Below, piece by piece: positions 2,441-61,512 of a stretch of DNA of 64,000 nt (its first letter is position 1; every line of letters begins with the position of its first letter). The stretch is from a bacterium (GTDB taxonomy: Bacteria; UBA10199; 2-02-FULL-44-16; JAAZCA01): NCBI GenBank assembly GCA_021810905.1, contig JAJZQH010000005.1, positions 124,001 to 188,000 on the forward strand, written 5' to 3'. The notes under the pieces are model-generated. The model did not search any database. It worked only from the letters and a program-made list of their open reading frames with translations, and was not told the DNA's origin. The translations under genes and the position numbers were made by a program.

Positions 2441-2464
2441 AGTCCACCCCCTTTCTTTAAACGG

Positions 2465-2507
2465 ATTATAACTCTTTGGTAGTCTGTTTCTATGCATGCT
2501 AATTATA
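2465..2507 (-). promoter_or_regulatory. Probable promoter region of the DUF4382 lipoprotein
   Basis: Two perfect TATAAT boxes read on the minus strand, at 2465-2470 and 2502-2507, in an AT-rich stretch upstream of the ATG at 2440. No convincing TTGACA-like -35 element sits at the right distance from either, so which one is used is unclear. Confidence 0.4.
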
Positions 2508-2636
2508 CTACTGATATATAAGAGCCTGAAGCCAAAATTTATTACTGCCATATATCTCGAGGGAACCGGCAGACGGAGCAAAACGGCGCTTCAGCGTAAC
2601 ACTTTGAAATAATTGCGCAAAGTCCCTCTGCACCTC

Positions 2637-2669
2637 AAAAAAAAACGGCCCCCTAACGGGAGCCGTTTT
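2637..2669 (-). terminator. Rho-independent terminator of the lipoprotein gene at 2690
   Basis: Read on the minus strand, AAAACGGC pairs with GCCGTTTT, with an inner TCCC/GGGG pairing, and the stem ends in a run of nine T. It lies 21 bases past the stop of the 2690-3775 gene and is a textbook intrinsic terminator. Confidence 0.85.
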
Positions 2670-2689
2670 GATACGCGTGGATTAGACCT

Positions 2690-3775
2690 CTATCTCACGC
2701 CAACTCCGTAGTTATAGTTCCATTCGCCTTGTTTTCCCGCAAAGACGAAGGCGCCTCCACCGATCGGCTGGACCACTGCATTAGCCCCTTCGATCATGAA
2801 GAATCCGATCCACGGCTCGCCAGCGGCGACCGCCCTTATTGTTTGGGCAGCTCCACCCCTGCCATCATCGACTGTGGCCTCGAAGGCATTAGCCTCGACC
2901 TTCGTGATGGTGACCGTGCCCACAGATGTCCCATGATCCGTTTCCGAATGGCTCCCGTAGAATACCGTGTTGTACACGTCGTTCAGAACGATCCCGTAGT
3001 CTGCCGGATTCGTCGACGTCCCTTTGAGGGTGTTGAAGCGGAGTCCCCTCTGCGGGCCCTTATCGATGACGCCCACGCCGCCTGGCGTATAATATAATGT
3101 CCACATTTCAGAAGTCCCGTCGTCATCCAGGACCGTGAGATTGAAGCCGGACGTTGCCGAATTATAGATGAAGTTGTCTACATCCATGCCCGCCGGGAAG
3201 TCATTCGCTGTGCCCACGTCATCGAGGTCGACAGGCAGGGCGTTGTCGGCGTTGGCGTGGTGACCGGTGATTGCGCCGTCTGCATCGACGTTGGACCAGA
3301 CCCATTTCACTCCCTTTTTGTCATGACGGAACTGAGTGAGAATATAGTTGTGACCCTTCAAGAAGGCGAGCTGCTGCGCAGTCGTGATGGTAGTGTCCAC
3401 CTTTACTGCGATGAGGATATCGCTCTTGTCTGGGACTTGCATGACAAACATCGTGTCCGGAACCATGAAACCCGTGAACTGGTTGGATGCGCTATCCGTG
3501 AAGGTGTAGGTGTGACCGCTGGCCGAATACGTCAGCTCCTTTGTCTCGATGAGGGTCCCATCGGTGGCAGAGTGGATGACGGTCGCCTTGCCCGTGGCCG
3601 GATAGTCAATCTTGAGGACGAAGATATCCCCTGCAGTCGCGGCCCCACCGAAGATCGCCGTGGGAGTCGAAGGCGTGCTGCCGCCCCCGCCACCCCCGCA
3701 TCCTGGCAAAAGCGAGAGACTCGCCCCGAGAAACAATGCAAGCGCTACTACTGAAATCTTCGACCATTTCTTCAT
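2690..3775 (-). CDS. Glycine-tethered lipoprotein of unknown function
   Basis: A 361-residue lipoprotein with signal peptide and lipobox LPGC (C26), followed by six Gly and a Ser/Thr/Pro linker. The remainder is rich in Thr, Asp and aromatic residues and has alternating patterns suggesting beta-strands. I recognise no family. The start is the ATG at 3773-3775, preceded by AAAAGGGGG, which is also where the signal peptide begins. A longer reading to 3949 has no signal. The tail ends in GEWNYNYGVGVR. It is monocistronic, with its own terminator. Its GCGGGGGG start is nearly identical to that of the downstream DUF4382 lipoprotein, suggesting the same export route. The C-terminal half does not resemble that neighbour. 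Confidence 0.75.
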   Translation of the reverse strand: MKKWSKISVVALALFLGASLSLLPGCGGGGGGSTPSTPTAIFGGAATAGDIFVLKIDYPATGKATVIHSATDGTLIETKELTYSASGHTYTFTDSASNQFTGFMVPDTMFVMQVPDKSDILIAVKVDTTITTAQQLAFLKGHNYILTQFRHDKKGVKWVWSNVDADGAITGHHANADNALPVDLDDVGTANDFPAGMDVDNFIYNSATSGFNLTVLDDDGTSEMWTLYYTPGGVGVIDKGPQRGLRFNTLKGTSTNPADYGIVLNDVYNTVFYGSHSETDHGTSVGTVTITKVEANAFEATVDDGRGGAAQTIRAVAAGEPWIGFFMIEGANAVVQPIGGGAFVFAGKQGEWNYNYGVGVR

Positions 3776-4116
3776 CTCGTGCCCCCTTTTTTTGATTTTA
3801 CGAAATTGTACCTGATTTTTTAAAAAAACCATAAGTGACTTTATGGACATAATGTCAACAAAAATATAGGGAATTCCCGAACCTGGCTCCGGTAATTCTA
3901 AGGATATGGAAGTAATAAGGCGCAAGGCAAAGTGAAGGCAAATCGTCAAATAGTTTGCTTATTGGCCGCAAATCGCGTAGTCATCACACGATACATGATC
4001 GGTTGCTTCGGTAGTGACGCACGTAATGTTACGGCGAACCGCGGGTCATGAAAAACGACTCGCGGTTTTTTGCGTTTTTGCCGGGCGTGGCGATCCTCAA
4101 GAAAGGAAGGAACAGT
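3776..4116. other. Intergenic region: lipoprotein promoter and long csp leader
   Basis: This 341-base divergent gap has an AT-rich left part that must carry the minus-strand lipoprotein promoter. The right part is the csp leader, which contains a terminator-like hairpin described separately. I see no convincing gene in it on either strand. Confidence 0.5.
4037..4071 (+). promoter_or_regulatory. Terminator-like hairpin in the csp leader (attenuator candidate)
   Basis: Arms 4037-4047 (AACCGCGGGTC) and 4057-4067 (GACTCGCGGTT) pair over 11 bases with one G-U. They are followed by six T, then GCGTTTTTG. The site is 46 bases before the csp ATG and no plus-strand gene precedes it. It is therefore a leader attenuator, a temperature-sensitive structure, or the end of a small RNA. 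Confidence 0.55.
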
Positions 4117-6262: not shown

Positions 6263-6414
6263 TTCGCGTTAGCAACCCGATACGATCTGCTGCGAAACGG
6301 CGCGCACCCTATACCAAGGCGGGGCGGAAAGCTATGTAATAATGGGTTCCGCGCCGATTTATCCCTGTGAAAATGGGCTGGGGAATGTGATGAAAATGTG
6401 ATAGGGGGCTCCCC

Positions 6415-8031
6415 ATGGAAAAAATCGATTCAGCTGCGCTCGGAGAGATCCGCCGCCGCAAGACCTTTGCGATCATCTCGCATCCCGATGCGGGCAAGAC
6501 GACCGTCACCGAGAAACTCCTGCTCTTCGGCAACGCCATTCAGATGGCAGGCACCGTCAAGGCCAAGCGTTCGGAGCAGTTCGCCACCTCCGACTGGATG
6601 GAGATCGAAAAGCAGCGCGGCATATCTGTGACCTCGTCCGTCATGCAGTTCTCGTATGCGGACTATGAGATCAACCTCCTCGACACGCCGGGACACGCGG
6701 ACTTCAGCGAGGACACCTACCGGGTGCTCACCGCGGTGGACAGCGCGCTCATGGTGATCGATTCCGCCAAGGGTATCGAGGCGCAGACGAAGAAACTCTT
6801 TCAGGTCTGCCGCGACCGCCACATGCCGATCATGACGCTCATGAACAAGATGGATCGGGAGGGGCGCGATCCGTTCGAGCTGCTGGACGAGCTGGAGAAC
6901 CTCCTTCATCTCTCCTGCGCCGTGATGACCTGGCCCATCGGGCAGGGGAGCGACTTCAAGGGCGTCTACGATTTGACGAATCGCTGCATCCGATTGTTTG
7001 AGCCGAGCAAAAAGGTGCGAGTCGAGGACGAGGAAGCGGTGCGCATTCAGGACCTGGACGACCCCAAGCTCAACGACGTGATCGGCGAGAGGGCGGTGGC
7101 AAAGCTCAAGGAAGATCTGGAGTTGATTCAGGGCGCGGGTCAGGGATTCAACAGAGACGATTATATCGCCGGCAAACTGACGCCCGTATTCTTCGGTTCC
7201 GCGGTCAACAACTTCGGCATCAGGGAGCTGCTCGACGCCTTCATCAGCTACGCGCCTTCGCCGCTCCCTCGCCCTGCGGAGACGCGGCTCGTGGACGCGG
7301 ACGAGGCGGCATTTACCGGGCTCGTCTTCAAGATCCAGGCGAACATGGATCCGAAGCACCGCGATCGAGTCGCGTTTATGAGGATCTGTTCCGGCGAATT
7401 CATCCAGGGGATGAGCGTGTACCACGTGCGATCGCAGCGCGAATTTAAAATCAAGAACGCGCTTCAATTCATGTCGCAGAAGCGCACGAACGTGGACCGC
7501 GCCTATGCCGGCGACATCATCGGCATTCACGATCGCGGAAATCTGATGATCGGCGACGCCATCACGATGGGCGAGGCGCTCAAGTTCACCGGCGTGCCGC
7601 AGTTTTCGCCGGACCACTTCAGCCTCGTGACGCTCAAGAATCCGATCAAGATAAAGCAACTTCAGAAGGGTCTGGAGCAGCTCGCTGAGGAGGGGAGTTC
7701 GCAGATCTTTCGCCGCAAGCACAATTCCGACACCATCATCGGAGTGGTGGGACAGCTTCAGCTCGAGGTGGTGAAGTTCAGGCTGCTCAACGAATACATG
7801 GCCGACGCGAGTTTCTATCCGATGAACTACACGTATTCACGCTGGTATCGCGCTGCGGAACGGAAGAAACAAAACGAGTTCGAAAACTATTACCACGATC
7901 ACATCGTCTACGACGTGCGCGGATATCCCATGATGCTCTTCAAGAGCGAGTGGGAGTTGAACTACATCCTGGGAAAACATCCGGACGTGAGTTTCTATTC
8001 GAGCCTCATCAACTATGAGCAGGATGTGTAG
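6415..8031 (+). CDS. prfC: Peptide chain release factor 3
   Basis: RF3, a 538-residue GTPase that removes RF1/RF2 from the ribosome after termination. It has G1 SHPDAGKTTVTE, G3 [14 protein letters not shown] and G4 NKMDREG near the start. The RF3-typical segment MAGTVKAK comes just after G1 and a conserved C-terminal domain follows. Length is normal. The ATG at 6415 follows GATAGGGGG. It is divergent from typA across about 200 bases. The downstream neighbour is convergent, leaving 32 bases with no obvious terminator. Confidence 0.97.
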   Translation: MEKIDSAALGEIRRRKTFAIISHPDAGKTTVTEKLLLFGNAIQMAGTVKAKRSEQFATSDWMEIEKQRGISVTSSVMQFSYADYEINLLDTPGHADFSEDTYRVLTAVDSALMVIDSAKGIEAQTKKLFQVCRDRHMPIMTLMNKMDREGRDPFELLDELENLLHLSCAVMTWPIGQGSDFKGVYDLTNRCIRLFEPSKKVRVEDEEAVRIQDLDDPKLNDVIGERAVAKLKEDLELIQGAGQGFNRDDYIAGKLTPVFFGSAVNNFGIRELLDAFISYAPSPLPRPAETRLVDADEAAFTGLVFKIQANMDPKHRDRVAFMRICSGEFIQGMSVYHVRSQREFKIKNALQFMSQKRTNVDRAYAGDIIGIHDRGNLMIGDAITMGEALKFTGVPQFSPDHFSLVTLKNPIKIKQLQKGLEQLAEEGSSQIFRRKHNSDTIIGVVGQLQLEVVKFRLLNEYMADASFYPMNYTYSRWYRAAERKKQNEFENYYHDHIVYDVRGYPMMLFKSEWELNYILGKHPDVSFYSSLINYEQDV

Positions 8032-8063
8032 GGTGTAGCTCAATGACGTGCGCGCAATCCTCT

Positions 8064-11000
8064 TCAGGTGCCAGGATGGGCTTCCTCATCCGCGCGCACC
8101 GCTCTCCCCATCCGCACCAGTACCCGGTGTTTGATGAGCTCCCTGCATAGCGGGATCACGCCGTCTTTCATGCGTTGGCCGTCGAGCTCCACGAGGGCGA
8201 CGCCCCGCTCGCAGTGCTCAGGGTTCTCGACCTGAATGTCGTAGATCGCCTCGCCGTGGCGGTATTTCATCCCAAAACCATCCCACCAGCCGGGTATGGT
8301 CGGATCGAGCCGCATCACATCTCCGCGCACTTCGAGTCCCAGAATCTCTTCCACCCAGGCGCGGTACATCCATGCCGCCGAACCCGTGTACCAGCTCCAA
8401 CCGCCATGGCCGACCCATCCAGGCGAGGCGTACACGTCGGCCGCTACCACGTACGGTTCCACGCCGTAACGCCAGACGGTTTCCGGATCTCGCGCGCGCT
8501 CCACAGGGCTGAGCCAGCGCAGCATTTTCGCCGCGCGGGTGCCGTCTCCCATGCGCGCCATAGCCATGGCGAGCCAGAGGGCGGCGTGCGTGTACTGGGC
8601 GCCGTTTTCCCGCACGCCCGGCGGGTATCCCTTGATGTATCCCGGCGATGGCTCGGCATGATCGAACGGAGGTTCAAAGAGCAGCACCAGCCCTTCATCC
8701 TCGCGAACGAGATGCTTCCACGCCGATTCCAATGCCAGCGTCGCCCTGGCCTTGTCGGCGGCGCCGCTTAAGACAGCCCAGGATTGAGGCAGGGAGTCGA
8801 TCCGCGCCTCAGCATTCGCCGACGAGCCCAGAAGCGAACCGTCGTCAAACGTCGCTCTGAGATACCAATCCCCATCCCATGCAAATTCTTCCACGCGCCG
8901 TACGAGCGCCTTCCGGTCGCGTTCATATGTCTGACTCATATCCGGACGGCCGAGCAATCGCGACATCTCCGCCATGCCTTCCAGCACATCAGCCAGGAAC
9001 CACGCGAGCCAGACGCTCTCGCCTTTGCCGCCGGCGCCCACCAGGTTCATCCCGTCGTTCCAGTCTCCAGTCCCCATCAGGGGCAATCCATGGATACCAA
9101 AGGCCTGGCTGCGTGCGACCGCGCGCTCACAGTGCTCAAATAGCGTGCTTTTCTCCGACGATATCGCCGGTATCTGGAGGCTCTCGTGCTGATCGTCTTT
9201 GAGCAGTGGCGCGTCGAGCCAGGAAACCGTCTCGCCCAGGATATTCACGTCGCCGGTGATCTTTACGTAGTGAGCGACTGCGAAGGGAAGCCACAACAGA
9301 TCGTCGGAGATCCGCGTGCGCACGCCCTCGCCGCGCGGCGGGTGCCACCAGTGCTGGACGTCGCCCTCCTTGAACTGGCGGCCGGCCGCGGAGAGGATGT
9401 GATCGCGCGCGAGTTGGGGATGCGCGTACACGAGCGCCATCACGTCCTGCAATTGATCGCGGAAGCCGAATGCGCCGCCGGACTGATAAAAAGCGGAACG
9501 CCCCCAGATCCTGCAGGAGAGACTCTGATAGAGCAGCCAGCGGTTGATCAGGAGATTCACGGCGAGTTCCGGGGTCTGCACTTCAATCGCGCCGAGGCGA
9601 TCGTCCCACCACGCCTTCGTCTGCTCGAGCGCGCTGGAAAGCTGCAGATCGTCGCGAAACGCAAGCACCATAGAATGGACCTCGCCCGCCGATCGCGCTT
9701 CGCCGAGCATGCAGGTGATTTGTGCGCTTTCGCCCGGTGCGAGTTTCAACTTTGCCTGCAGCGCGGCGCAAGGATCAAGGCCCGCTCCAGTCCTTCGTGC
9801 AAGCCTCGTCCGCTTCATCGCCGCCGGGTTTTCCATCGAGCGGTTGCGTCCGATGAAGGCGGTGCGATCGCCGGTGTACGACGCCGCGGGCAAGCTGAGA
9901 GCAGCGAAGGCCACCCGATCCGCATAATCGGGATTGTAGAAATTGCGGGCGATCAACACCTCTGCCTCGTCATCCCACTCGGTCACGACGTGCGCCTGGG
10001 ACGATTCGCGGGTCTCGCCCAGCGTTAACGAAGCATAATACGTCACCGACAGCCTGCGAGTCCTGGCGGTATCGTTTCTGAGTGAGAGCCTTTGCAGCTT
10101 GATCGGCTGCCCGCCATCGTCATCCATGGGAACGAAGAGAGTCAATTCCTGCTCGATGCCATTGCTGTTGTGCTCGAATACAGTGTAACCCGCCCCGTGC
10201 CTGGCCCGGTACGCGGTCTGCTCGCGGATGGGCGCCGCAGTGGGCGTCCAGAAGACGCCGGTTTCCTCATCACGGATGTAGAGCGCTTCGGAAGGCGGAT
10301 CCATCACTGGATCATTCGACCATTGCGTCAGACGATTGCGCTGGCTGTTGCCGGCCCAGGTGAATCCAGCGCCCGTTTCGCTGACGAGCGTGCCGAAGGC
10401 GCGGTTCGCGATGACGTTCACCCAGGGCGCCGGCGTGCTCATGCCCGGGCCGAGATAGATAGCGTATTCGCGGCCATCCGGCGTGAAGCCGCCGAGGCTG
10501 TTGAAGAAGGAAAGTTCCATGAAGGGGAGCGCGGCGGAAGGATCCCGCGGGGCGCGTTTCGAAACGATCGGCGCCGGCACTTCGGGAGCCTTGTGCGGAG
10601 CGCTCAATTGCTGGGGGAGCGTGCCGCGGGCCGCCACCACTACCGCGCTCGCCGCCGCCCGCAAAAGCGTCAGGTCTTCGGCCGGGATCAGATCCGCACT
10701 TCGCAGATATACCCCGCCGGGCCGATCGACTCCCGTCGCAGCGGAATGCGCCTGGATCAGGTAGTCGAGCTGTTCGCGCAGCGGCTGCATGTAGCCGCCG
10801 GTCTCCTCGTTGAGGATCACGAGGTCGACCATCAGCCCATGCATGCGCCAATAATTGTGCGCGTTCAGCATTTGACGGACGAGGCCGAGATCCCTTGATT
10901 CGCCCACGGCCAGCAGCACGATGGGCAGATCGCCCGAGATGGCGTACGCCCACAAACCGGCCTGACCCTTGCGGTTGCGGGCAATGCGTTCCGCGGACGA

Positions 11001-14000
11001 ACGCAGGAGCGGATTGGGATAGAGCAGATGGCTTGCCAGTTGCTGGAAGCACCGCGCGTCATCCGGCTGGATGTGCAGCAGGCGCAGCTCGAGTTGAGCC
11101 GACCCCCAGGCGAGGTCCATCGCCCGCTCGATCGCATGGGGATCGCCGTACTTGGAGATCAAGCCGAGGACCTGTTCTCGCGACTCGCCTGCGGCAAGGA
11201 TCATGGAAACCTGGATGTGCTGCCCCGGGGCGAGTTCCAATCTCTGGCGCAGGCTTAAGATAGGATCCAGTACAAAACCCTGGCTGTTGCCGGGTTCCTG
11301 CGAGGCGCCCATGGGGCTGGCGAGCGTTCGTCCGCGGCCGACGAAGCGCCTGCGGTCGGTCTCGAAGCGCAGCTCCTCGCCCGTGGTTTCATCCAGCGTC
11401 AAACGGTGCGCGACGAAGACGGACGGGTCGCTGCTGCCGCGAGGCCGGCGGTATGCCAGAAGCGCTCGCTCCTGAATCAACGCCTCGGTCTGGACGAAGA
11501 GTTTGTTGAAAGCGGGATGCTTCAGGTCGGCATCGTGCTTTGCCAGCGAAAGTTCGACGTAGCTCGTCAGATCGAGCCGGCGGGTGTGCGAGGAACGATT
11601 GGCGAGCGTCATCCTCCGGATCTCGACGTCGTCTTCCGGCGCGACGACGACCTCGGTTTCACACTCGATGTCATGATCGACGCGGCGGAACATCGCGCGG
11701 TCGAGCGTGAAGTTGGCGCAGTAATCTTGAACCTTTCCGCCGGTCGGCTGATAGGTATTGCACCACAGCCGGTCTGCATCGGCATCTCGGATATAACAGA
11801 AGTTCCCCCACGGATCCCGGGTGCGGTCCGATCGCCAGCGCGTAATCTCGATGTCGTTCCAGCGGCTGTAGCCGCCGCCGGCGTTCGTCACCATGACGCC
11901 ATAGCGCCCGTTGCACAACAGCTGGGTCTTGGGGTTTGCGGTATGCGGCGTTTCGAACTGGCTGACCGCCGGCGTGACGTCGCCGACGCTCGCCACCGAC
12001 GTCACTCGTTCGCGTGTGGCGCTGTGATGCAGCGGCGGAACGTCCGGGATGCGCTCGTGCAAGAGGGCTTCCGCGGCGCGCACGCGCGGGTCGGCGTGAA
12101 AATGGCGTTTCAGAGAATGATCCTGCAGAAAATTGACGAGCGCCATAAAACTCATTCCCTGGTGATGCGCCATGTAGGCTCGCACGATCACCCCGCGCTC
12201 ACCCTCGCGGCTCGTCTGTCCGCTAAAGTCCAGCGCCTCGTAATATCCGTAATCGGTGAGCAGTCCCAGCGCGGCCAGCCGTTTCAGGTTCCGCACCGAT
12301 GCCAGAGGCGCCAGTCCGATCGACAGCATGGTGGCATAGGGCGCGACGACGATTTTTGAAGCGATGTCGCGCTTGAGTGCGAGTTCCGGCACGCCAAAGG
12401 CTGCGTATTGATGGGTTTTGTGAATATCCAGATCGCCGAAGGCGCACTCCGATATCCCCCACGGCACGTGATGCTTGAGTCCATACGCGATCTGGATCTC
12501 CACGGCTTCACGCGCGGCTTTTTCCAGGAGCGAATTCGCATCGGCGTGCTGGAACAGAAGCGGCATGAGGTATTCGAACATCGTCCCGGTCCAGCTCAGC
12601 AGCGCGCGCCTCCGGCCGATGGCGCCGTAGGGACGGCTCATGGCAAACCAGTGTTCAACCGGAACGTCTCCCCGCGCGATGGCGACGAAACTTCCCAGGC
12701 GCGCTTCGCTCGCCAGAAGATCGTAAAAGGCGCGGTCCAGTCGCCCTTCGGAGACGTTGTACCCGATCGAAAAGAGCCGCCGATCCTCGTTGTAGAGGAA
12801 GCGCATGTTGATCGATGCTTCGAACGTGCGCGCCGACTCCTGCAGCCGTTCGATGAGCGCGAGAGTCTCGCCTGCCAGCCATTTTGATTTTTCGAAGGCA
12901 TCCAGGGCGCGCTCGATCCAGCCCCTCAGGGCGGAAGCATCCGGCGGCGCGTTTTCACGAATACGCATCAGGGATGCGATGCATGGGATATTTCCACGGG
13001 CGAGGTCCTGGAGCGACGGTGCGCGATGAAGGGCCTCACGGAAAGACGGCACGGCATCCGGATCCGCTTCGGCGATTTCCTCAACCGTCTTCTCGTTTAA
13101 GATTTCGATCCATGCGAGATAACGATCCGCGATGTTCTTCCACTCTGCGAGCTGGCACCGTATCTGCCGCATCCAATACGCGGCGCTTTCTTCGGCGGCA
13201 GCTGAACCGGACGATCTTGCGGAAAGATCGCCGGCGCCGGCTTCCGTGCGCCGCAAGAGGCCGAGGATGGCGGCGACTGTGCCGGGCCGGGATTCCCAAC
13301 CGCGCAGCAGAGCACGCAGGGCATGCATATCGAAGTCCCTGCGTTTTCCATCCGCGATTACCTTTTGCAACACGCTCTCCGTATCCAGCAGGCCCTCGAA
13401 GATTTTGCCGTCGAGGAGCGGCGCCCGCAGGAGAGCACGAAGCCCCTGATCCAGGGTCCACAATGCCCCGAGCAGATTCCCGCTGTCCACTGTGGAAACG
13501 TAGCGCGGCTTCAACGGCTCCAGGGTCCGGATGTCGTACCAGTTGAGCAGATGCCCCTCATGCCGCTCCAGCTTCTCGATCGTCTCCATCGTCCGCGTGA
13601 GCTTGTGTGCGACCTGATCCACGGTGACATATCCGAAATCGTGGGCGCCCAGCACGCTGACCAGATAGAGGCCGATATTGGTGGGGCTCGTCCGCAGGGC
13701 CAGCCGATTGTGATAGGCGACCTGGTAATTGTCGGGCGGCAACCATGAGGTATCCTCATCCACAAAATCCGAGAAATAGCGCCAGGTCCGCCTCGCGGCA
13801 TTCCTCATGAATTGCCTGTCCACTGCCGGCAGCAGGAATTGCGGTTGCATGATCCGCGGTCTTCTGTTGAGGAGCCAGCCGATCAACGGGGAGAAAAACC
13901 AGAGCACCAGCCACGGGCATGCCATCCAGAAATTTTCCGGTCGAAAATTATGCACTGCCCATCCTGCGGCCACGCTGAGCGAACTCACCAACCCCATGGA

Positions 14001-17000
14001 AAGCAGAAACAGCGGCGACCTGGTCTGCACGCTGCTATTGGTTTCCTGTGCCGAAGTCCACTCCAGGAGCCTCCTATGGGAGATGAGCCTTCGATAGAAT
14101 ACCCGTGTTACGGCGTCCAGCACCAGCCAGGCCTGGTACGGAAGCAGCGCCGCTTCCGCCAGCACGCGGATCAGATCATAAGTTTTTCTCGTAAGGGAGA
14201 CACCCCTCCAGCCCCTGCCCGTTGTCACCCAGGTGACCGGCTGTGCGAGGGAGCGAAAGAGCAATTGAGCAGCGACCGCCGCGGTGGCGATCAACCCGGC
14301 TTGTGAGGAGACGAACCACGAGACCACGAGGAAACCGAGGCTGGCTGCGGGCAACCAGCTACGCCGCAGGTTATCGAATATCTTCCAGCGATTGAACCAG
14401 GAGAGCGGGTTGGCCCCCCGCCCGCCGCTGCCCAGCGGAACGCACGGCGTGGACCAGTCCGCGATCTGCCAGTCTCCGCGTATCCAGCGGTGCTGCCGCT
14501 TGACGTAACTCACGTAATCCTGCGGAAATTCGTCGTACAGCTCTATGTCGCTGGCGAGCGCCACCCTGACGTGTGCGCCTTCGATCAGATCATGGCTGAG
14601 GAGCAATCCTTGAGGAAACCTGCCGGACAGGATTTTGCTGAAGGTGCGAACGTCATAGATGCCTTTGCCGTGATAGGAACCTTCGCCGGCCAGATCCTGG
14701 TAGACGTCGGAAACCGCGCTGGTGTAGGGATCGATTCCGACCGGGTCCGAGAAGAGCCGGCTGAAAGGAGAACCGTTCGCGCTCGGCAGCGAGGCGCTGA
14801 CGCGCGGCTGGATGATGGTGTAGCCGGATCGGACGATGCCCGCGTCGTCCAGGCGAGCCTGGTTCAGCGGATGCGCCAGGGTCTCTATCATCCTGCGGGC
14901 GGTGTCGTGCGGCAGCTGCGTGTCGCTGTCCAGGGTGATGACGAACCTGACGTTCCTCAGGTGATCGGGATTGCCGACGTAGACGAGGCGCTGTGCCTCT
15001 TGAGACCGCGTGCCGTCTATCAGGCCGTTCAATTCCTCCAGCTTCCCGCGCTTGCGCTCCCAGCCGATGAATCTCTGCTCGGAGTCGCACCATATCCGCT
15101 CACGGTGAAACAGGAAAAAACGCTCGCCCCCATGTCGCCGATTGAGTTCTTCGATGCCCCGCGTGGCGGCTTGAAGCAGGGATTCGTCCGCCTCTACGCG
15201 GGCCTCGTCCGCATCCGCGTAATCCGAAAAAAGGCCAAAGAGCAGGTTGGACTCCGCATTGGCGAGATAACGGATCTCAAGTTTTTCCGCTTCGGCTGCA
15301 ACCGTCTCAGGATCCGTGAGCATCATCGGCACGACAACCAAGGTTCGGCAGGAATCGGGAATTCCGGAAATCTTGAAATCCATCTTCGGCAGGGTGCGCG
15401 GCGGGAAGATACGTGTGACGAGGTAATTCACCACATCGAGCGACAGCTGGCTCGCGGGGATGATGAGGAGCATGACGATGATAGTCTGCAGCCAAAGGGC
15501 ATCAGTGCGCAGGCCGAACCAGAGGGCCAGGAAAATAAATGCCGCAGAGAAAAAGGTGAGCCCGGAGAAATAGACCGCCGTGTGACGACGGCTCGCCCAT
15601 CGCAGGGCGCGAAAACCAAACGTCTCATGGCATCCGATGCGCTTTGCCAGAGCGCTTCTTTTTTCGCCGATGAGATACGTTCCGACGTGCGCCGAAAGTT
15701 CATCGTGGGCGTCGACGCTGCCGGCCTCGTTCGCCATTTCGATCGCGCGCGCCGCAACTTCATCCTCCGTGAGGCCGGACCCGCGGTGGAGATCCTCAAT
15801 CGCCCTGCGATAGCTGTCGCGCGTGGCGAAATCCATCTGGGGATAGATGCCGGCGGGATCCTGCCGCAACGTCTGCTCCACCTGGCTCACGCGTTCAAAG
15901 CACTTCTTCCAGTCGAGCAAGGAGAGCTGGCGCAGGCTTATAAAGGCATTCCCGATGGAGAGCTGATCCCTCGTCTGACGGTTTGTCACACGCAGGCTGA
16001 GTTCATTTAAGGTTTCGTGGAACGTATGTTCGAGCCAGCCCCGCACCGATGAGAGCACAGCCCCTTCATCATATAAGTAATCCATCAGCTGAACGGCGAA
16101 ATAGGGGCTTGGGTTATGATGTGCTTCGGCCAGTTCGGCCAGGATCGAGAATATCTGGCCTGGATCTTGCCGGTTGGCAGTGATGAGCCGGTTAGCCCAG
16201 AAATCGGCAATCTCCCGCTCGCGCAGCTCGGCCAATGCCCGGCCGGCTATCTGCCCGATACCCTCGAGAAGCACTATGCGCAGCATCTGAGGAACGACCC
16301 AGAGTTCGCCGATGGAGAGCGGCTTTCTGGTTTGATAGGCATCGATAAAGGCCAGGACGTTCTCATCGTCCAGGCGCAGATCGGTGTGAGAGGCGAGTTC
16401 CGCGGCCAGGCTGTAGATTCGCGGCAGTCCCCGGTCGGGCTCGCTCGCAAGCGATGGGAGCTGACGGTAAAAATGACGCGGCAGGTTCAGCTGAACGTCG
16501 CGGGCTGAGCTCTCGAGGATATATTCATTATCAAGGAGCCACTCGGCAGCGGGCGGCACGCTTTGCTCCAGGTGGCCCGCCTCGGAGAGGGATAAGCATA
16601 TCTGTTGAACCCATCTGCGGCCCTGTTCAACGCGCTGGAGGAGCCGTGTGTCCCGGAGAGGTTCCTCGTCTATCCGGTGCTCCATGGCCAGCCGCTCGGC
16701 ATGTTCCTGCAATTGCGCCGGACCAAACGGCGTCCCTGCGTGGCTCGCGAGATCGTAGGCAGGGCCCTCGCGGCGGGGATGCAGGACGAAGATCGCGGGA
16801 GGGATCTCGCCGCTTTCCATCAGGAGATCGAAGGGGACGCGCATGGTTTCGATCGGACCCGTGAGGATCAGGACGGTCTCGCCCACGGAAAGCCAGCGCG
16901 CGTGATTCTCAAGGAGCTTTCGATCGACGCCGAATCTCGAGCGCCGCGTCTCAATCTTTCCCGCAGAATTCTTACTCATCGTTGCCGCGCGATGAAAACC

Positions 17001-51383: not shown

Positions 51384-52687
51384 GGCTGTTTCCTGAGCAG
51401 CGTGAAGAGGAACTTGACTCCCTCGCCGCCGTAGGCCGCGCGGAAACGTATGACGATCACGCGCGTCGCTTCAAGATCGAATCCTCCTCCCGCCGAGTAT
51501 TTGAAATCCTTGAACGAAAAATTTGAGAGTCCGTCGAAGACGCGCCCGTAGTCAAACAGGACCATGCCGCGCAGACTCGAAAAGAGGGGGAAATAATATT
51601 CGGCGTTGAACACGGAGCTCGCGCGGCCGCGGAAACGTCCGCGGTCAAAGCCGCGCAGCCAGTGGTCTGCATCCAGCACGGTCATGCGGGGCATGGGCAT
51701 GCTGCCCGGGCTCTGCTGCAACCACCAGTGCGTACGGAGCATGAGCGTGTGCTCTGGAGACCAGAGAGGTATGTATTGGCTAAGCAGCAATCGTATGTCG
51801 TTGTAGCTGAAATTCCCTCCGCCGCCCATATATTGAAAGCGGCTGAATTCGAGCGCATGGACCCCGCCGCGGCGCGGGTCCCATGTTACGTCCCGCGAGT
51901 CGTGAGTGATTCCCGCGCCCATGCGGAGATAGGAGAGCCAGCGGCCGTATCCCGCTGGCGGGAAATCGGCGGGATCGATACCCGTGTTGGAGGCGTCACC
52001 GGTCGACGTGGCCGAGCCTCCCATGATGGCGTAGAGATCGAGAGTCTTTACCGGCGCCACCCCGAACCGCACGGCCCCGTCGAGATCCTGTTGGTTCCAG
52101 CTCGACTCGTTTGACTCAGGCGTATTGTTGCCCACGCCAAAGTAGTTAAATGAGCCCCGCTTCATCCAGGCTCCGTTGAATGCGAGTTCCACCGGGAGAT
52201 CGCCGATCCGGAGGAGCTCGATCTTTCCGAAGGAGATATCGGCGAACATGTCGAGGTTCACGTGTACGCGGTAGTCGGCGTCGATGTTGTTGCCCGGACC
52301 GAATATATCGAGCGCCTTGACGGCAAAGCCGCCGCCGAAACTCGATCCAGGGCTTTTGTCCATCACCGGATAGATCCAGATCCTGCGGGACTTGAACGAG
52401 AAAAAGTCCTCAACGCGTTCCGAATAGTGTTTGCGCTGCATCCACTCGATCGATTCGCCCAGCGGCCAGAGCACTGCCTTGAGTGCGTAGCTCGGGATTT
52501 CGAGAGGAAAGAGGACGATGCGCCTTGCAGTATAAGATGGCGGCGCCGTGACGCGGGATGCCGGTTCGTCTACAGCGATCGCCTGCGGAGGCGGGGGAGG
52601 GGGGCGCGTGGGCGCCCTCATCGCATAAGCAGGCCCTGCCGCGGCCATCAGCGCGAAGATCACTATGAACTCAAACGCCCTTCGCAA
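51380..52687 (-). CDS. BamA/TamA-like outer-membrane barrel protein
   Basis: A 435-residue protein. A signal peptide (RRAFEFIVIFALMAAAGPAYA) is followed by a Pro-rich linker and then barrel-like strands ending with the C-terminal surface-antigen signature region (VIVIRFRAAYGGEGVKFLFTL). There are no POTRA domains of the usual number. The start is a TTG at 52685-52687, because the signal peptide begins there and GGGGGAAAAA lies just upstream. A longer reading to another TTG at 52810 has no ribosome site. The ATG of the next gene overlaps its stop. It is divergent from the Nramp gene with 109 bases between starts. Confidence 0.75.
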   Translation of the reverse strand: MRRAFEFIVIFALMAAAGPAYAMRAPTRPPPPPPQAIAVDEPASRVTAPPSYTARRIVLFPLEIPSYALKAVLWPLGESIEWMQRKHYSERVEDFFSFKSRRIWIYPVMDKSPGSSFGGGFAVKALDIFGPGNNIDADYRVHVNLDMFADISFGKIELLRIGDLPVELAFNGAWMKRGSFNYFGVGNNTPESNESSWNQQDLDGAVRFGVAPVKTLDLYAIMGGSATSTGDASNTGIDPADFPPAGYGRWLSYLRMGAGITHDSRDVTWDPRRGGVHALEFSRFQYMGGGGNFSYNDIRLLLSQYIPLWSPEHTLMLRTHWWLQQSPGSMPMPRMTVLDADHWLRGFDRGRFRGRASSVFNAEYYFPLFSSLRGMVLFDYGRVFDGLSNFSFKDFKYSAGGGFDLEATRVIVIRFRAAYGGEGVKFLFTLLRKQP

Positions 52688-52796
52688 TTTTTCCCCCGAT
52701 GGATGCAGATTATGCGAGCGGCGGTACTTTGCCAACAGCTTACTCGTTGCTTCGCCAAAACGATCGTCGTATTCTGGGCCGTCAATCGGGGGATCG

Positions 52797-54680
52797 GTGG
52801 ATTCGAGCAAAGGAAATTACAAGGGCGATGTTGCGGTCAGGAAACCTGGATGGGTTCGCAAGTTCCTGGCCTTTGCCGGTCCCGCGTATCTCGTAAGCGT
52901 GGGTTACATGGACCCGGGCAACTGGGCCACGGACATCGCGGGCGGCGCGCGGTTCGGCTATACTCTCATCTGGGTCCTTTTGATGTCCAACGTGATGGCG
53001 CTGCTGTTGCAGACGCTGGCTGCGCGGCTCGGCATCGTGACCGGGCTCGACCTCGCTCAGGGTTGCAGGAGGGAATATTCACGGGCGCTCAACTTTTTTC
53101 TCTGGGTGCTCGCTGAAATCGCCATCGCGGCCACGGACCTCGCTGAAATCATAGGCACCGTCGTAGGGCTCAATCTGCTCTTTGGACTGCCCCTGCTCTG
53201 GGGCTGCGCGATCACGGCCTTTGATACGTTCCTCTTCCTCGCGCTCCAGCGCTACGGCATCAGGAAGATGGAGGCGTTCATCGTGATGCTGGTCGGCACG
53301 ATCGGCGCGTGTTTCTTCATAGAAATATTCCTGGCAAAACCGGATTGGGGAGGGATCGCCGCGGGCTTTGTGCCTCACCTCGAACCCTCGGCGCTCTACG
53401 TGGCCATAGGCATGATCGGCGCAACGGTGATGCCGCACAATTTATACCTGCACTCCTCGCTCGTGCAGTCGCGCGCCGTAGCGGACACCGTGACCGGCCG
53501 CAGGTCTGCGTGTCGATTCAACTTCCTGGATTCAGGCCTCGCCCTCAACGCGGCGTTCCTCGTGAACTCCGCGATCCTCATCATGGCCGCGGCTACGTTT
53601 TACAGCCGCGGTATCGAGGTGACCGAAATCCAGCAGGCGCACAGCCTGCTCGACGGCATCCTGGGGACGCGCGTCGCGCCGATCGCGTTCGCAGTGGCTT
53701 TGCTTGCCGCGGGCCAGAGCTCGACGCTCACCGGCACCCTGTCGGGGCAGATCGTCATGGAAGGTTTTCTCAACCTCCGCATCCAGCCGTGGCTCAGGCG
53801 TTTTATCACTCGCGCCATCGCACTTGTTCCAGCGGTAGTGGCCATCGCTTTGGCGGGGAGCAGCGGACTCTTTCATCTGCTAATCCTCTCGCAGGTAGTG
53901 TTGAGCCTGCAGCTCCCGTTCGCGGTCATCCCGCTCATTCACTTCACTTCAGATAAAAAGAAAATGGGCGTTTTTGCCAACAACGCGTGGATCAAACTCC
54001 TCGCATGGATCATCGCGGCGATCATCGTCCTGCTCAACATGAAACTCGTGTACGACGAACTCTCAGGATGGCTCGGCGGAGGGCCGGCGTGGACCTTTGT
54101 ACTGGCGGTTCCGCCGCTGGCCGCGGTTCTGGGCATTCTGGCATGGGTGAGCTTCGCACCTGTTTTCCGGGCCGGCCGCGCATGGGAAAGCGGAGTGATG
54201 AGGGACGAACATGCCGTTGCCGCGTCGATCAAACAATTCACTGTACGCCACATCGGCGTGGCGCTCGAACATGCCGAGGGTGATTCCATCGTCCTATCTG
54301 CGGCGCTGGCGCAGGCAAAGGCCTACAAGGCGAGGCTCACGCTGCTCCACGTCGTGGATACTCCCGGTACTATGATGATGGGCAACCAGAGCAGCAGCCT
54401 GCACGGCACGGAGGATGAGTCGTATCTCGACGGGCTTGCGCGCGAGATCGAGGAGCGCGACCTCCCGGTGGAATCGCTGGTGCTCTTCGGCAACCCGCCG
54501 CGTGAGCTCGCCAAGGCCGTAAAAGCGGCCGGGCTCGACATGATGGTGATGGGTTCGCACGGCCATAGCGGCATTGAGGACCTCATTTTCGGGCAGACGG
54601 TCGACGCGTTGCGACACGCAGTAAATATCCCCGTGCTGGTGGTGCGAAGCTTTGGCAAGGAAAAGGCGCAGCGGGGATGA
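52797..54680 (+). CDS. Nramp divalent-metal transporter fused to a universal-stress domain
   Basis: A 627-residue protein. The transporter part (about 1-450) has the metal-binding DPGNW (D39 region) on helix 1 and MPHNLYLHS (near 212) on helix 6, plus about eleven hydrophobic helices, as in MntH. It carries Mn2+ or Fe2+ with protons. A USP domain follows, from about 480: HIGVALEHAEGDSIVLSAAL and MVMGSHGHSGIEDLIFGQT, with the G-x2-G-x9-G type ATP loop. The start is a GTG at 52797, six bases after GGGGGA. A longer reading runs into the divergent promoter region. The USP domain may sense adenine nucleotides to control transport, which is an inference. Confidence 0.9.
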   Translation: MDSSKGNYKGDVAVRKPGWVRKFLAFAGPAYLVSVGYMDPGNWATDIAGGARFGYTLIWVLLMSNVMALLLQTLAARLGIVTGLDLAQGCRREYSRALNFFLWVLAEIAIAATDLAEIIGTVVGLNLLFGLPLLWGCAITAFDTFLFLALQRYGIRKMEAFIVMLVGTIGACFFIEIFLAKPDWGGIAAGFVPHLEPSALYVAIGMIGATVMPHNLYLHSSLVQSRAVADTVTGRRSACRFNFLDSGLALNAAFLVNSAILIMAAATFYSRGIEVTEIQQAHSLLDGILGTRVAPIAFAVALLAAGQSSTLTGTLSGQIVMEGFLNLRIQPWLRRFITRAIALVPAVVAIALAGSSGLFHLLILSQVVLSLQLPFAVIPLIHFTSDKKKMGVFANNAWIKLLAWIIAAIIVLLNMKLVYDELSGWLGGGPAWTFVLAVPPLAAVLGILAWVSFAPVFRAGRAWESGVMRDEHAVAASIKQFTVRHIGVALEHAEGDSIVLSAALAQAKAYKARLTLLHVVDTPGTMMMGNQSSSLHGTEDESYLDGLAREIEERDLPVESLVLFGNPPRELAKAVKAAGLDMMVMGSHGHSGIEDLIFGQTVDALRHAVNIPVLVVRSFGKEKAQRG

Positions 54681-56800: not shown

Positions 56801-57147
56801 TTGGAGACCAAAGATCGACAAAAAGACAATTCTATTCTAACCGATTTGTCTGATGAAGACAATTTTAACTCGATATTATCGATGGAGTATTTTACTGCCC
56901 TGAATTTTTTATCAGCTTGATAAGATGAATCTCGCCCGCAATGTGCCATAAAGACAAAATATTTGCAGACTTATCGCTAAACTGGTGGATTTGAATGCAG
57001 GGAAAATAATACACCTCATTTTTTTTGCTCCATCTGTCGGTAAGTTACAAGCAACAACAGGGTGCGTTGAGCCGATAATAGAAAGGGATGGAGTGGTGCG
57101 CCCCCATCCTTGCGGAATCGGGAATATACTCAGGAGTCTATGCCGTA

Positions 57148-58920
57148 ATGAGTGATCATTATCAAATCAACGGCCATCTCGCATTAAAGCTGGACTTTGA
57201 GGAATTTGCCGCGCGCCTGAAACAGGCTGCGGGTGATTCGTGGCGGCCGGAGATCGTCTCTGACAAAGATATTTCTCACGAGGAACTTCTCGCCCTCCTG
57301 GATTGCGGCCGCGATGGCAATCTCACGGCCGCGGACTTTCTGAAAAATCCGGCGATCGTTCTGCATGACGACGTAGCGGACGGGCTTCTGATCAGGCTCA
57401 CATATGACGGCTTTGAAAATTTGCGCCGATTCGAAGGATTGCGCGACTCCCTCTCTCCGATAAAACTGAATGGACGTACCGACTGGTTCCGCAGCGTCAT
57501 CGCAAAGCGCGGGATCACGGACGCGTCTGTGCTCAGAGATGAGGATATCGATTATCTGACCATGGCGGTGGTGAAGAACTTCAACCTCCTGCCGCTCATC
57601 CCTCCGCGCTATCAGCGTGCAGTATGGAACCGGGCGTTGCAGATGGTGCGCAAGGACGGTGTGGCGTTCGATCCTGCGCGTGTGGCCACTCAAGCGGACC
57701 TTGTGCGCACGCTCGGAGAGCATGGCATCAATTTTACGAAGCGCATTCGCAGCCTTTCCACCGCGCTGACGCTGACAGGCGAGCGCGACTCGCTCGATCG
57801 CAAACCCGATAATCGGCCGATCGCCTTGCTTTTCTATACCACGAAAGATCGCAATGATGCGTTTGAAACGGTTCCAGTTGTCGACAGGTTTGTGGAGAGC
57901 GGAAAATTCCGCGTCCTGTATTATGAAGTCTCAACTGAAGGTGAAGAGAGAAGGATACGCGCCGAAGTCACGTCAAGGACCGGGAGAAAGATCCATACGC
58001 TCGCATATGGCGGACACGGCAACAGCAAGAGCCTTGCCCTTGGCGACGATCATGGCTTTGATCCTTTGCGGAGCAACGAAAAATATTTCGTCGACACCGT
58101 GGATTTCGACGAGGGCGATTTCAACGAGCTTGCCTCGCAGATGGATGAACACGGGCAGGTCCTTCTCGACGCGTGCAGCAACGGCGAAGGCGGCGACGAG
58201 AACGACAATCTGACGAATCGTTTTGCCGAGGCCTTGCCCGGCCGGCGGATCTTCAGTTCGAAAGTTCCGACCAACATGCTCGATTTTTTTATCAACGACG
58301 ATCTCAGCATCTACGTGTCATGGAGTGCACGCAGCCCCTATGAAGCCCGCGCCGCGGAGGGGAGTCTTCCCAGATGGACCTCTCTCTATCGGAGCGGTTT
58401 CCAGACAGGGGCCCAGGCACTCTATCAGTTGGGAATTAAGAATGCGGATGCGCCGGGGGACGTTCTTTTCTTCAATGATGTATCCGGCGTCAGGATATGG
58501 GAAGGCTATCGTTTTGCTCAGTATATCGGGCTGCGCGCGGCGCTCGACATGGAACGCGTGCGCACCTCCAATGCGCCCACGCCGTCGGATACGATGATCG
58601 ATGCGTCGGTCGGTGTATTTCTCCAGCCGACTCCCGACTATAAAGGAGGGAGATCGCTCTTCTCCTTCACCTTCATGCTCCCGGAGATCGGCTATTTCCG
58701 CATGATGGGGCAGGACGTGAGCGGTTTGTCGATAGCGTCTCCAGGTGCTCAGCTGGGTATCAGCCTGAGCGATCGAATAATGCTGGAAGGTTTCGGCAGG
58801 TTCAAATTTTACAAGACCTTCGGCATGAGCGACCACGGCAATCTGGGCGGCCCGCAATTCGGCCTCGGCCTCACGTATCACACGGGCGAGGTGGAGTGGG
58901 AGAGGGCTGGTAGCAAGTAA
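57148..58920 (+). CDS. Caspase-like cysteine protease with an EF-hand-like loop
   Basis: A 590-residue protein. A His-Cys pair typical of clan CD proteases is present: IHTLAYGGHGNSKSLAL (H290) and QVLLDACSNGEGG (C343), 53 residues apart, after a hydrophobic strand (PIALLFYTTKD) at about 245. An EF-hand-like loop lies at D52-D63 (DCGRDGNLTAAD), with one deviation (Gly at position 3). The C-terminal ~130 residues have strand-rich segments (SLFSFTFMLPEIGYF, PQFGLGLTYHTGEVEW) of unknown type. No signal peptide was found. The start at 57148 follows CAGGAG; 57088 is an in-frame alternative. Function is unknown. A calcium-triggered protease is a hypothesis. Confidence 0.72.
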   Translation: MSDHYQINGHLALKLDFEEFAARLKQAAGDSWRPEIVSDKDISHEELLALLDCGRDGNLTAADFLKNPAIVLHDDVADGLLIRLTYDGFENLRRFEGLRDSLSPIKLNGRTDWFRSVIAKRGITDASVLRDEDIDYLTMAVVKNFNLLPLIPPRYQRAVWNRALQMVRKDGVAFDPARVATQADLVRTLGEHGINFTKRIRSLSTALTLTGERDSLDRKPDNRPIALLFYTTKDRNDAFETVPVVDRFVESGKFRVLYYEVSTEGEERRIRAEVTSRTGRKIHTLAYGGHGNSKSLALGDDHGFDPLRSNEKYFVDTVDFDEGDFNELASQMDEHGQVLLDACSNGEGGDENDNLTNRFAEALPGRRIFSSKVPTNMLDFFINDDLSIYVSWSARSPYEARAAEGSLPRWTSLYRSGFQTGAQALYQLGIKNADAPGDVLFFNDVSGVRIWEGYRFAQYIGLRAALDMERVRTSNAPTPSDTMIDASVGVFLQPTPDYKGGRSLFSFTFMLPEIGYFRMMGQDVSGLSIASPGAQLGISLSDRIMLEGFGRFKFYKTFGMSDHGNLGGPQFGLGLTYHTGEVEWERAGSK

Positions 58921-59091
58921 TCGACAGTCTCTTCGCGTTGCCATTATTTTGACGTCCTGATAGCGATTTCTCATTTTGACTCCCCTCTCCCTCTCAATAA
59001 AAATAATAAAATCAGAGACTTGACTGGGGTTTTTCATGGCATGGAGATTGCAAATTTATGTAAGTCGTCCATCTCGGAGGGGAGACTGGCC

Positions 59092-61512
59092 ATGTCGAAT
59101 ACGCGGAAAATTTCGATGATCGCATTCATCGTGAGTATCATTGCAGGGACGAGCTTCATAATGATTGGGACGGGGCAGGGCCTGGTCAAGCCGCAGCTCA
59201 TCAATCCGGTTCCGGCGACGATCTACAAGGTCACTAAGACAACCGACACGTCTGGAGCGTGCACGGCATCGGACTGTTCCCTGCGCGCTGCCATTACGGC
59301 GGCCAATGCGCATGCCGGAAACGACACGATCGAGGTGCCGTCGGGGCAGTATGTATTGACGGGTCAGGTCGACGAAGATCTGAATGCTGGAGGCGATCTC
59401 GACATCACGGATTCGGTGACGGTCAAAGGCACGGGGAGCTCTCCGTCTATTATTGACGGCAATCACGCGGATCGCGTGTTTCATATTCTGAAGGGGGCAA
59501 GGATTGAACTGCTGAATCTGGATATTCGGAATGGCGATCATGTGTATCTCGGAGGTGGAATCGGGATCGGTACGACGTTCACGGACGCATCAACTGTCGT
59601 CCTGCGTGATTGCATCGTCCAGGACAATCATGCAATCAGCCAGGGGGGCGGAATCTTCTTCCGGGGAGACAACGTCCGGCTCGATCTGCTCCGGACAAAA
59701 GTGCTCAGGAACGTCGTCGGGATCCAGAATGGCAATGATTATGCTTTTGGAGGGGGACTCCACTTCTGGGGGAAATCTATCCTCAATATAGCTGATGCTG
59801 TTTTCGATGGAAACAGAGCGCCCTATGGTACGTCCTCTGACCAGAATGCGGGAGTTGCGGGCGCCCTTTATGTCCGCGCTGCCAATGATGCGGCAAAAGA
59901 TGTGATCCTGACAAATACTCAGCTCATCAACAACAGCGCGGTCGATACCGGCGGTATTGCTACGGACTCCGGGAGTGCGTGCAGTGCTGCCTTATCTCTC
60001 AACAACATCGTGCTCCAGAATAACAGTGCGACGGCGGGATACAGCGCGGCGAGCTTCTGTGTCACGTCTGCGACGATCGCTTCTTCCCAGGTGATCGGCA
60101 ACAAGGGAGGAACGTACGGCAACTTCGCCATCAATGCCCGCGCTGCATCGACATCAGTAACGCTGACCGATGTGAGGGTCGTCGATAACGACCTGCGGGG
60201 ATTGGATGTTTCCACGCAGTATAATGGTCCGATAGTTGCTGACAGGCTGGTCCTTCAAAACAACAGGTCCGGAGGAGGAGAACTGGAAGCGGCAGGGGTG
60301 AAGATCACGAACAGTACCATCTCGGACAATGCCGTTGTCGGGGGTCTGCGTCTCACGAGCACGAAAGACGTTGTTATCACGGGAACGACTGTTGCGAACA
60401 ACGCGTCGGAATCCGGCGTGGGCGGCCTGGATATCTTTTCAAATGCATCGTTCACGATTGAGGCGTCGAGCATCGTCGGAAATCGGAGTCAAAATGATAC
60501 CGGTGGCGTCTTACTGGAGGCACAGAATTGCACGATCAAGAACGTAACGATCTCCGGAAACAGCACCGGATCGGGCGCCGATAAGGCCGGCGGGCTTGAG
60601 GTGAAGGTGAACAACGCTCAGCTTTCCAACGTGACGATGACTGGAAATGCAGCGCCCGCTGGCAGCGGTTCGCTTCTTCTTCAGACCAACGTCCACGTGT
60701 CGATCATCAACTCGATCCTTTCCAGCCCACAGAGTGTGACGATGTGCGATTTCAGGGGCGGAGTGCCGCTTGGGATAATCACATCACAGGGATATAACCT
60801 CGTGTCGGACACGAGCTGCAATCTCACGGCTGCGGGCGATCATCAGAACATCGACCCGAAGCTCGGTCCGCTCGCGGACAATGGCGGCCTTACTATGACG
60901 CACATTCTGCTCGCCGGGAGTCCGGCGATCGATGCCGGGGGAACGGTTGCAGCTGTTACGAAGGATCAGCGTGGTGTTGATCGTCCGAAGGATGGAAACG
61001 GCGATGGTACGATTGCTTACGACATCGGTGCAGTTGAAATCGATTTCTTCTGCGGCAACGGGACGAAAAATGCCGACGAAGAGTGCGATGATGGTTCTGC
61101 GAACAGCAATACCGGAGCATGCCTGCCCACGTGTGTGTCGGCCACCTGCGGCGACGGATTCGTGTGGGCAGGGCATGAGGAGTGCGATGATGGCGCGGCC
61201 AACAGCGACACGAGGGCATGTCTTCCCAATTGCGTGAAGGCCAAGTGCGGCGACGGATTCGTGGAAGCGGGCGTTGAGGAATGCGATGACGGCAACACCG
61301 TGGATGGAGACGGCTGCAGCGCACTCTGTAACATTGAACAGACTGCTCAGCAGACACAGCAACAGGCGCCCGAACTCTCCGGGTCACCGGGCGGACAGCC
61401 TGCACCGACCCCAGCGCCGACAGGTTCCGGGGCCACCTCGGGAGGTGGAGCTGGAGGTGAGGCGCCAGCAAGTTCTTCCGGCGGCTGCAGCCTGATGCCG
61501 GGCCTGCGCTGA
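59092..61512 (+). CDS. Secreted beta-helix protein with CSLR motif, DUF4215-type Cys repeats and Gly/Cys tail
   Basis: An 806-residue exported protein. After a hydrophobic N-terminus comes [16 protein letters not shown], the CSLREA motif of beta-helix surface proteins. Residues about 100-620 are rich in N, T and G with repeated hydrophobic rungs, as in right-handed parallel beta-helices. A choice-of-anchor-Q-type block follows ([31 protein letters not shown]). Three DUF4215-type Cys repeats ([15 protein letters not shown] and two similar) come next, then a Ser/Pro/Thr/Gly-rich tail ending [12 protein letters not shown]. The ATG at 59092 follows CGGAGGGGAGA. Similar proteins sit on the surface of Myxococcus-like bacteria. 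It is terminated by a strong hairpin. Confidence 0.82.

What the first reader, a model, noticed from the sequence alone, without database searches (positions are those of the whole stretch)
57148..58920. Caspase-like protease fused to an EF-hand-like loop and a strand-rich C-terminus
The sequence shows a YGGHG block (H290) and a DACSNG block (C343) with the spacing of caspase-type proteases, plus a calcium-loop-like DCGRDGNLTAAD at residues 52-63. Caspase-like enzymes in bacteria are often effectors of regulated cell death or protein processing. No partner gene is adjacent, so this would be a self-contained, possibly calcium-controlled unit.
Basis: partly seen in the sequence, partly recalled or inferred. 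Interest (0 to 1): 0.62.

Follow-up and report, generated by a model that had tools for sequence, protein, structure and literature searches.

The report
Leaderless caspase-like protease, uncatalogued family
This gene encodes a probable protein-cutting enzyme built on the caspase fold, one of five related copies in the genome of a bacterium whose phylum almost always carries a needle-type (type III) secretion system, so it may act on other cells rather than as a bacterial suicide enzyme.

Summary
ORF 57148-58920 (591 aa) has YGGHG at H290 and DACSNG at C343. Homologues occur in 22 of 46 genomes of the phylum, with five copies in this genome. Across 29 aligned members only four residues are invariant: D234, E260, H290 and C343. 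One further copy lost both H and C.

No family library names the query, but 8 of 29 members match DUF4347 (best 2.8e-8). A profile comparison with bacterial caspases (C14) puts H on H and C on C, above every shuffled control. The nearest solved relative by sequence, not significant alone, is Tce1, a type VI secretion effector proposed to be a cysteine protease. AlphaFold models from two sequences were too weak to prove the fold.

EF-hand loops are a recurrent N-terminal feature of the family (10 in the first 120 residues, 1 elsewhere). The query's own loop has Gly at ligand position 3, so calcium control of this copy is doubtful. The C-terminus is an orphan extension, unverified.

No partner gene is conserved, no examined member has a Sec-type leader, and the phylum almost universally has a non-flagellar type III secretion gene (SctV). 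I favour an exported effector protease over a cell-death enzyme; export is inferred, not shown.

The parts
57132..57136 (+). AGGAG, ribosome-binding-site-like, 11 nt before the ATG at 57148
   Evidence: Read directly in the sequence
57148..58920 (+). Protein-coding gene, 591 aa
   Evidence: Open reading frame; base composition by codon position is coding-like over the whole length
57148..57432 (+). N-terminal module (residues 1-95) shared with relatives, holding the EF-hand-like segment
   Evidence: Alignment A6 of 8 members; profile finds it in two proteins of this genome
57301..57336 (+). EF-hand-like loop DCGRDGNLTAAD, residues 52-63; Gly at ligand position 3
57433..57594 (+). Helical-looking segment before the peptidase domain; its end aligns with the end of the DUF4116 array of the C3 paralog, but it has no Pfam match of its own
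   Evidence: BLAST alignment q144-412 to L021; query has no Pfam match
57595..58365 (+). Caspase-like (p20-type) peptidase domain, residues 150-406
   Evidence: Family profile; comparison with C14
57847..57849 (+). Invariant D234, in the D-x-N-x-A-F block after the first core strand
   Evidence: Invariant in 29 members
57925..57927 (+). Invariant E260
   Evidence: Invariant in 29 members
58015..58017 (+). H290, presumed catalytic histidine (YGGHG)
   Evidence: Invariant in 29 members; aligns with the C14 histidine
58174..58176 (+). C343, presumed catalytic cysteine (DACSNG)
   Evidence: Invariant in 29 members; aligns with the C14 cysteine
58366..58917 (+). C-terminal extension of 184 aa, orphan; most family members end within 40 aa of the peptidase domain
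   Evidence: Tail lengths; only weak matches elsewhere

Best explanation
A caspase-fold (clan CD) cysteine peptidase of an uncatalogued family next to DUF4347. H290 activates C343, which cuts a peptide bond in a target protein or in the protein itself; invariant D234 and E260 probably orient the histidine or shape the substrate pocket. The N-terminal EF-hand-like module and the segment before the peptidase act as a targeting or regulatory part, which in relatives is elaborated into DUF4116, HEAT-like or disordered stretches. With no Sec leader, no operon partner and fast-diverging paralogs, it is more likely an effector exported by the non-flagellar type III secretion system of the phylum than a housekeeping or suicide protease. 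Shown: conservation of the four residues, profile homology to DUF4347 and C14, the module architecture, absence of Sec leaders, presence of SctV. Inferred: proteolysis, how it is activated, and export.
For: D234, E260, H290 and C343 are the only residues invariant in 29 members. Relatives match DUF4347 over the curated cut-off and 8 of 29 match it at E<0.1. Family profile versus 27 C14 domains: score 35.3, E 2e-4, H on H and C on C; 100 column shuffles reach at most 19.8, reversed 21.1. Best PDB chain by sequence is Tce1 (9qpe_G, E 0.077), dyad on dyad; Tce1 is a type VI effector and putative cysteine protease (PMC13323088). None of 28 N-termini shows a Sec-type hydrophobic core. SctV lies in this genome over its cut-off with FlhA below its own, and over cut-off in 38 of 46 genomes.
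Against: The AlphaFold models are poor and the fold search is inconclusive. The PDB match is not significant by itself. Nearly every genome of the phylum has SctV, so its presence cannot separate carriers from non-carriers of this family, and only SctV was tested, not a whole apparatus. The query's N-terminus starts at once with a structured-looking module, not the disordered stretch usual in type III effectors (own knowledge). No activity or secretion has been tested.
Confidence: 0.55

Rival explanations
1. A cytoplasmic, calcium-regulated caspase homologue that processes the bacterium's own proteins or carries out regulated cell death.
For: Caspase-type dyad; EF-hand loops recur at the N-termini of family members; no Sec leader; bacterial caspase homologues are known and some archaeal ones carry EF-hand motifs (PMC6426788).
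Against: The query's loop lacks a ligand at position 3 and matches no EF-hand profile. No conserved partner or death-related neighbour. No match of the query in the defence library.
Confidence: 0.28
2. The domain has the fold but is not a peptidase in the query: a scaffold or binding protein, or an enzyme of another kind on a related alpha/beta fold.
For: One family copy has lost both H and C; the query matches no peptidase model; the fold search returned mostly generic alpha/beta proteins.
Against: H and C are invariant in 29 of 30 uninterrupted copies, which is unusual for a scaffold; both align with the catalytic pair of C14.
Confidence: 0.12
3. The C-terminus is a membrane-embedded beta-barrel and the protein is an outer-membrane protease.
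For: Alternating-hydrophobicity segments in the C-terminal extension; L037 also has a long tail; a 305-aa protein in G018 with a barrel-like ending matches at E 3.5e-4 for one genome.
Against: No signal peptide to reach the outer membrane; the match is weak after allowing for 46 genomes; no usable model.
Confidence: 0.05

Closest known systems
DUF4347 (PF14252), including Tce1/PA0256 of Pseudomonas aeruginosa (PDB 9qpe)
   Same: Same motif layout (xHG...C), similar H-to-C spacing (53 in the query, 54 in Tce1), dyad aligned on dyad; relatives match the Pfam model over its cut-off
   Different: The query itself does not match the model; the family has its own invariant D and E and long N-terminal modules
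Peptidase C14 orthocaspases and metacaspases
   Same: Clan CD motif layout; H on H and C on C in profile comparison; EF-hand plus p20 has been reported in archaeal orthocaspases (PMC6426788)
   Different: No C14 match in the query; the acidic residue two before the catalytic Cys is in the query but not in its relatives
Peptidase C80 (self-processing domains of large bacterial toxins)
   Same: Tce1, the nearest solved relative, was reported to resemble C80 domains (PMC13323088)
   Different: No member matches the Pfam model
CHAT (clan CD, often with helical repeats)
   Same: Helical repeats plus a C-terminal clan CD-like domain
   Different: Only weak matches (E 0.016 in one member; PDB E 0.38)

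Membership tests
Clan CD (caspase fold) cysteine peptidases | Conserved His then Cys at the ends of two core strands | tested here: met
   Invariant in 29 members; aligned with the C14 pair, above all shuffled controls
Clan CD (caspase fold) cysteine peptidases | Caspase-type three-dimensional core | tested here: inconclusive
   Domain model has the expected strand-helix order but pLDDT 44.5 and pTM 0.46; fold search without a significant match
Clan CD (caspase fold) cysteine peptidases | Proteolytic activity dependent on the Cys | not testable with these tools
   Needs purified protein
Peptidase C14 (orthocaspase) | Match to the Pfam C14 model over its cut-off | tested here: not met
   None in the query, none in this genome; best family member E 0.0075 on the isolated domain
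Peptidase C14 (orthocaspase) | Asp two residues before the catalytic Cys, for basic P1 residues | tested here: not met
   Present in the query (DAC) but not conserved in relatives; role from PMC6426788
DUF4347 | Match to PF14252 over its cut-off | tested here: inconclusive
   Not met by the query, met by relatives; 8 of 29 match at E<0.1
Peptidase C80 | Match to the Pfam C80 model | tested here: not met
   Not among the matches of any member
EF-hand calcium-binding proteins | Oxygen ligands at loop positions 1, 3, 5 and 12 | tested here: not met
   Query has D, G, D, D: position 3 is Gly; several relatives keep all four
Type III secretion effector | Producing genome encodes a non-flagellar type III secretion system | tested here: inconclusive
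   SctV present over its cut-off; other components not tested
Type III secretion effector | Secretion by that system | not testable with these tools
   No Sec leader is compatible but not proof

The most novel reading that the evidence does not exclude
A phylum-wide, fast-diversifying family of caspase-fold proteases with EF-hand or repeat-based N-termini is delivered by a near-universal type III secretion system of a barely known phylum, which would mean that these bacteria routinely act on other cells.
Probability: 0.22. Interest if true: 0.75.

Novelty: new variant of a known kind. Interest (0 to 1): 0.47.

Why it matters
The family links DUF4347, whose first solved member is a secreted putative protease, to the caspase clan, and supplies about 30 divergent sequences that reduce the strictly conserved residues to four (D, E, H, C). 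If the proteins are exported, they give a handle on what a barely known phylum uses its type III secretion system for. If not, they are a lineage-specific set of caspase homologues with EF-hand and repeat modules.

Tried and rejected
A viral-contig scan and a plasmid search found none. Foldseek gave generic alpha/beta and chance matches, with caspases among them at insignificant E. Conserved neighbours: none; an ATPase family lies in 5 of 32 loci, which I took for background without testing it. Defence library: single weak matches in relatives only, OloA 0.0014 and KwaB 0.0015, not pursued. Phage families: unnamed phrog_31839 in 7 members, which I took to reflect the DUF4116 repeats but did not check. 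The first C14 comparison included wrong-frame rows and was replaced. L039 (dyad lost) and L033 (split by a stop) were left out of alignment A8 by choice. The name of the phylum was not established and is left out.

Full report
1. The gene. The ORF at 57148-58920 (+) encodes 591 aa. A longer reading from 57088 exists, but AGGAG at 57132-57136 and the N-terminal block M-x-x-[FY]-x-I-N-G shared with relatives favour 57148. H290 (58015-58017), C343 (58174-58176) and the loop DCGRDGNLTAAD (57301-57336) are as described.

2. A family, not a chance motif. Relatives were found in 18 of 60 genomes by protein search and in 22 of 46 genomes of the class by profile; the phylum search returned the same 46 genomes. 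This genome has five copies: C16:181k (the query), C3:65k, C16:57.5k, C18:85.7k and C4:31k. An alignment of 29 peptidase domains has exactly four invariant residues: D234, E260, H290 and C343. One further copy (L039, G028) has lost both H and C, and one (L033, G017) is split by an in-frame TAG; both were left out of that alignment.

3. Fold and clan. Pfam finds nothing in the query, but relatives match DUF4347 over its curated cut-off, and 8 of 29 members match it at E<0.1, best 2.8e-8. The family profile aligned with 27 C14 domains gives score 35.3 and E 2e-4, with H on H and C on C; 100 column shuffles reach at most 19.8 and the reversed profile 21.1. Against the PDB the best chain is 9qpe_G (E 0.077, not significant alone), again dyad on dyad. 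From the paper, that chain is Tce1 (PA0256), a type VI effector described as a putative cysteine protease with H186 and C240 (PMC13323088). The AlphaFold domain model, from two sequences, shows the expected order of strands and helices but pLDDT 44.5, and its fold search is inconclusive. I hold the clan CD assignment at about 0.8 on sequence grounds, structure unproven.

4. Not a plain orthocaspase. The C14 model does not match the query, and the Asp two residues before the catalytic Cys, which such enzymes use for basic substrates (PMC6426788), is in the query but not conserved in relatives. The family has its own D-x-N-x-A-F block.

5. Architecture. In most members the peptidase domain is C-terminal, ending within 40 aa of the stop; the query (184 aa), L037 (142 aa) and L078 (75 aa) are exceptions. 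Upstream lie DUF4116 repeats (E 1.8e-117 in the C3 paralog; modelled elsewhere as an alpha-solenoid, PMC8078820), HEAT/Arm-like repeats (L040) or Pro/Ser-rich stretches. EF-hand-like loops occur near the N-terminus of members scattered over the tree: 10 loops in 3,480 N-terminal residues against 1 in 15,269 others. The EF-hand is thus a real family feature, but the query's copy has Gly at ligand position 3 and no EF-hand profile matches it. In this genome the module occurs in two proteins only.

6. Context. No neighbouring gene recurs across 32 loci. None of 28 N-termini has a Sec-type hydrophobic core, by a simple hydropathy measure. The genome has SctV, over its curated cut-off and with FlhA below its own. 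SctV is over its cut-off in 38 of 46 genomes and matched in 44. Whether the whole apparatus is present was not tested.

7. Mechanism. Most likely a leaderless cysteine peptidase using H290 and C343, whose N-terminus decides where or when it acts. I rate export as an effector somewhat above a cytosolic regulated protease because of the missing partner, the divergence among paralogs, the secreted relative Tce1 and the near-universal SctV. This is circumstantial: a trait that almost all genomes share cannot separate carriers from non-carriers.

8. Novelty. New variant of a known kind: an uncatalogued clan CD subfamily next to DUF4347, with EF-hand and DUF4116 architectures.

Noticed in passing
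L021 (G000:C3:58000-74000) 1770-3831 and 8039-10099: A 2.06-kb direct repeat, 98.6% identical, flanks the C3 paralog and its neighbour; the last codons of the paralog lie inside the repeat, so three adjacent proteins end in nearly the same tail, FC[AN]REAVNCP.
   Followed up: partly
L021 3841-5847: The gene just before the C3 paralog encodes a 669-aa protein with EF-hand-like loops at its N-terminus and an HEAAH metalloprotease-like motif.
   Followed up: no
L144 (G000:C18:8000-27000) 9580-14961: Next to sctV lie two paralogous HEAT-repeat-like proteins that share a low-complexity N-terminus (MSSVN...), candidates for substrates of the secretion system.
   Followed up: no
46 genomes of the window's class: SctV of a non-flagellar type III secretion system matches in 44 of 46 genomes, 38 over the curated cut-off.
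   Followed up: partly
L039 (G028:C9) 6264-7580 (-): A family member that has lost both catalytic residues, a possible pseudoprotease or decaying copy.
   Followed up: no
window 59020-61512 (+): The gene after the query encodes an 830-aa repetitive protein with a DUF4215 match near its C-terminus (E 3.2e-12); its repeats look like a beta-helix by eye.
   Followed up: no
window 52665-54680 (+): By eye, a metal-transporter-like (NRAMP-type) protein with a C-terminal universal-stress-protein-like domain in one 671-aa frame; not searched.
   Followed up: no
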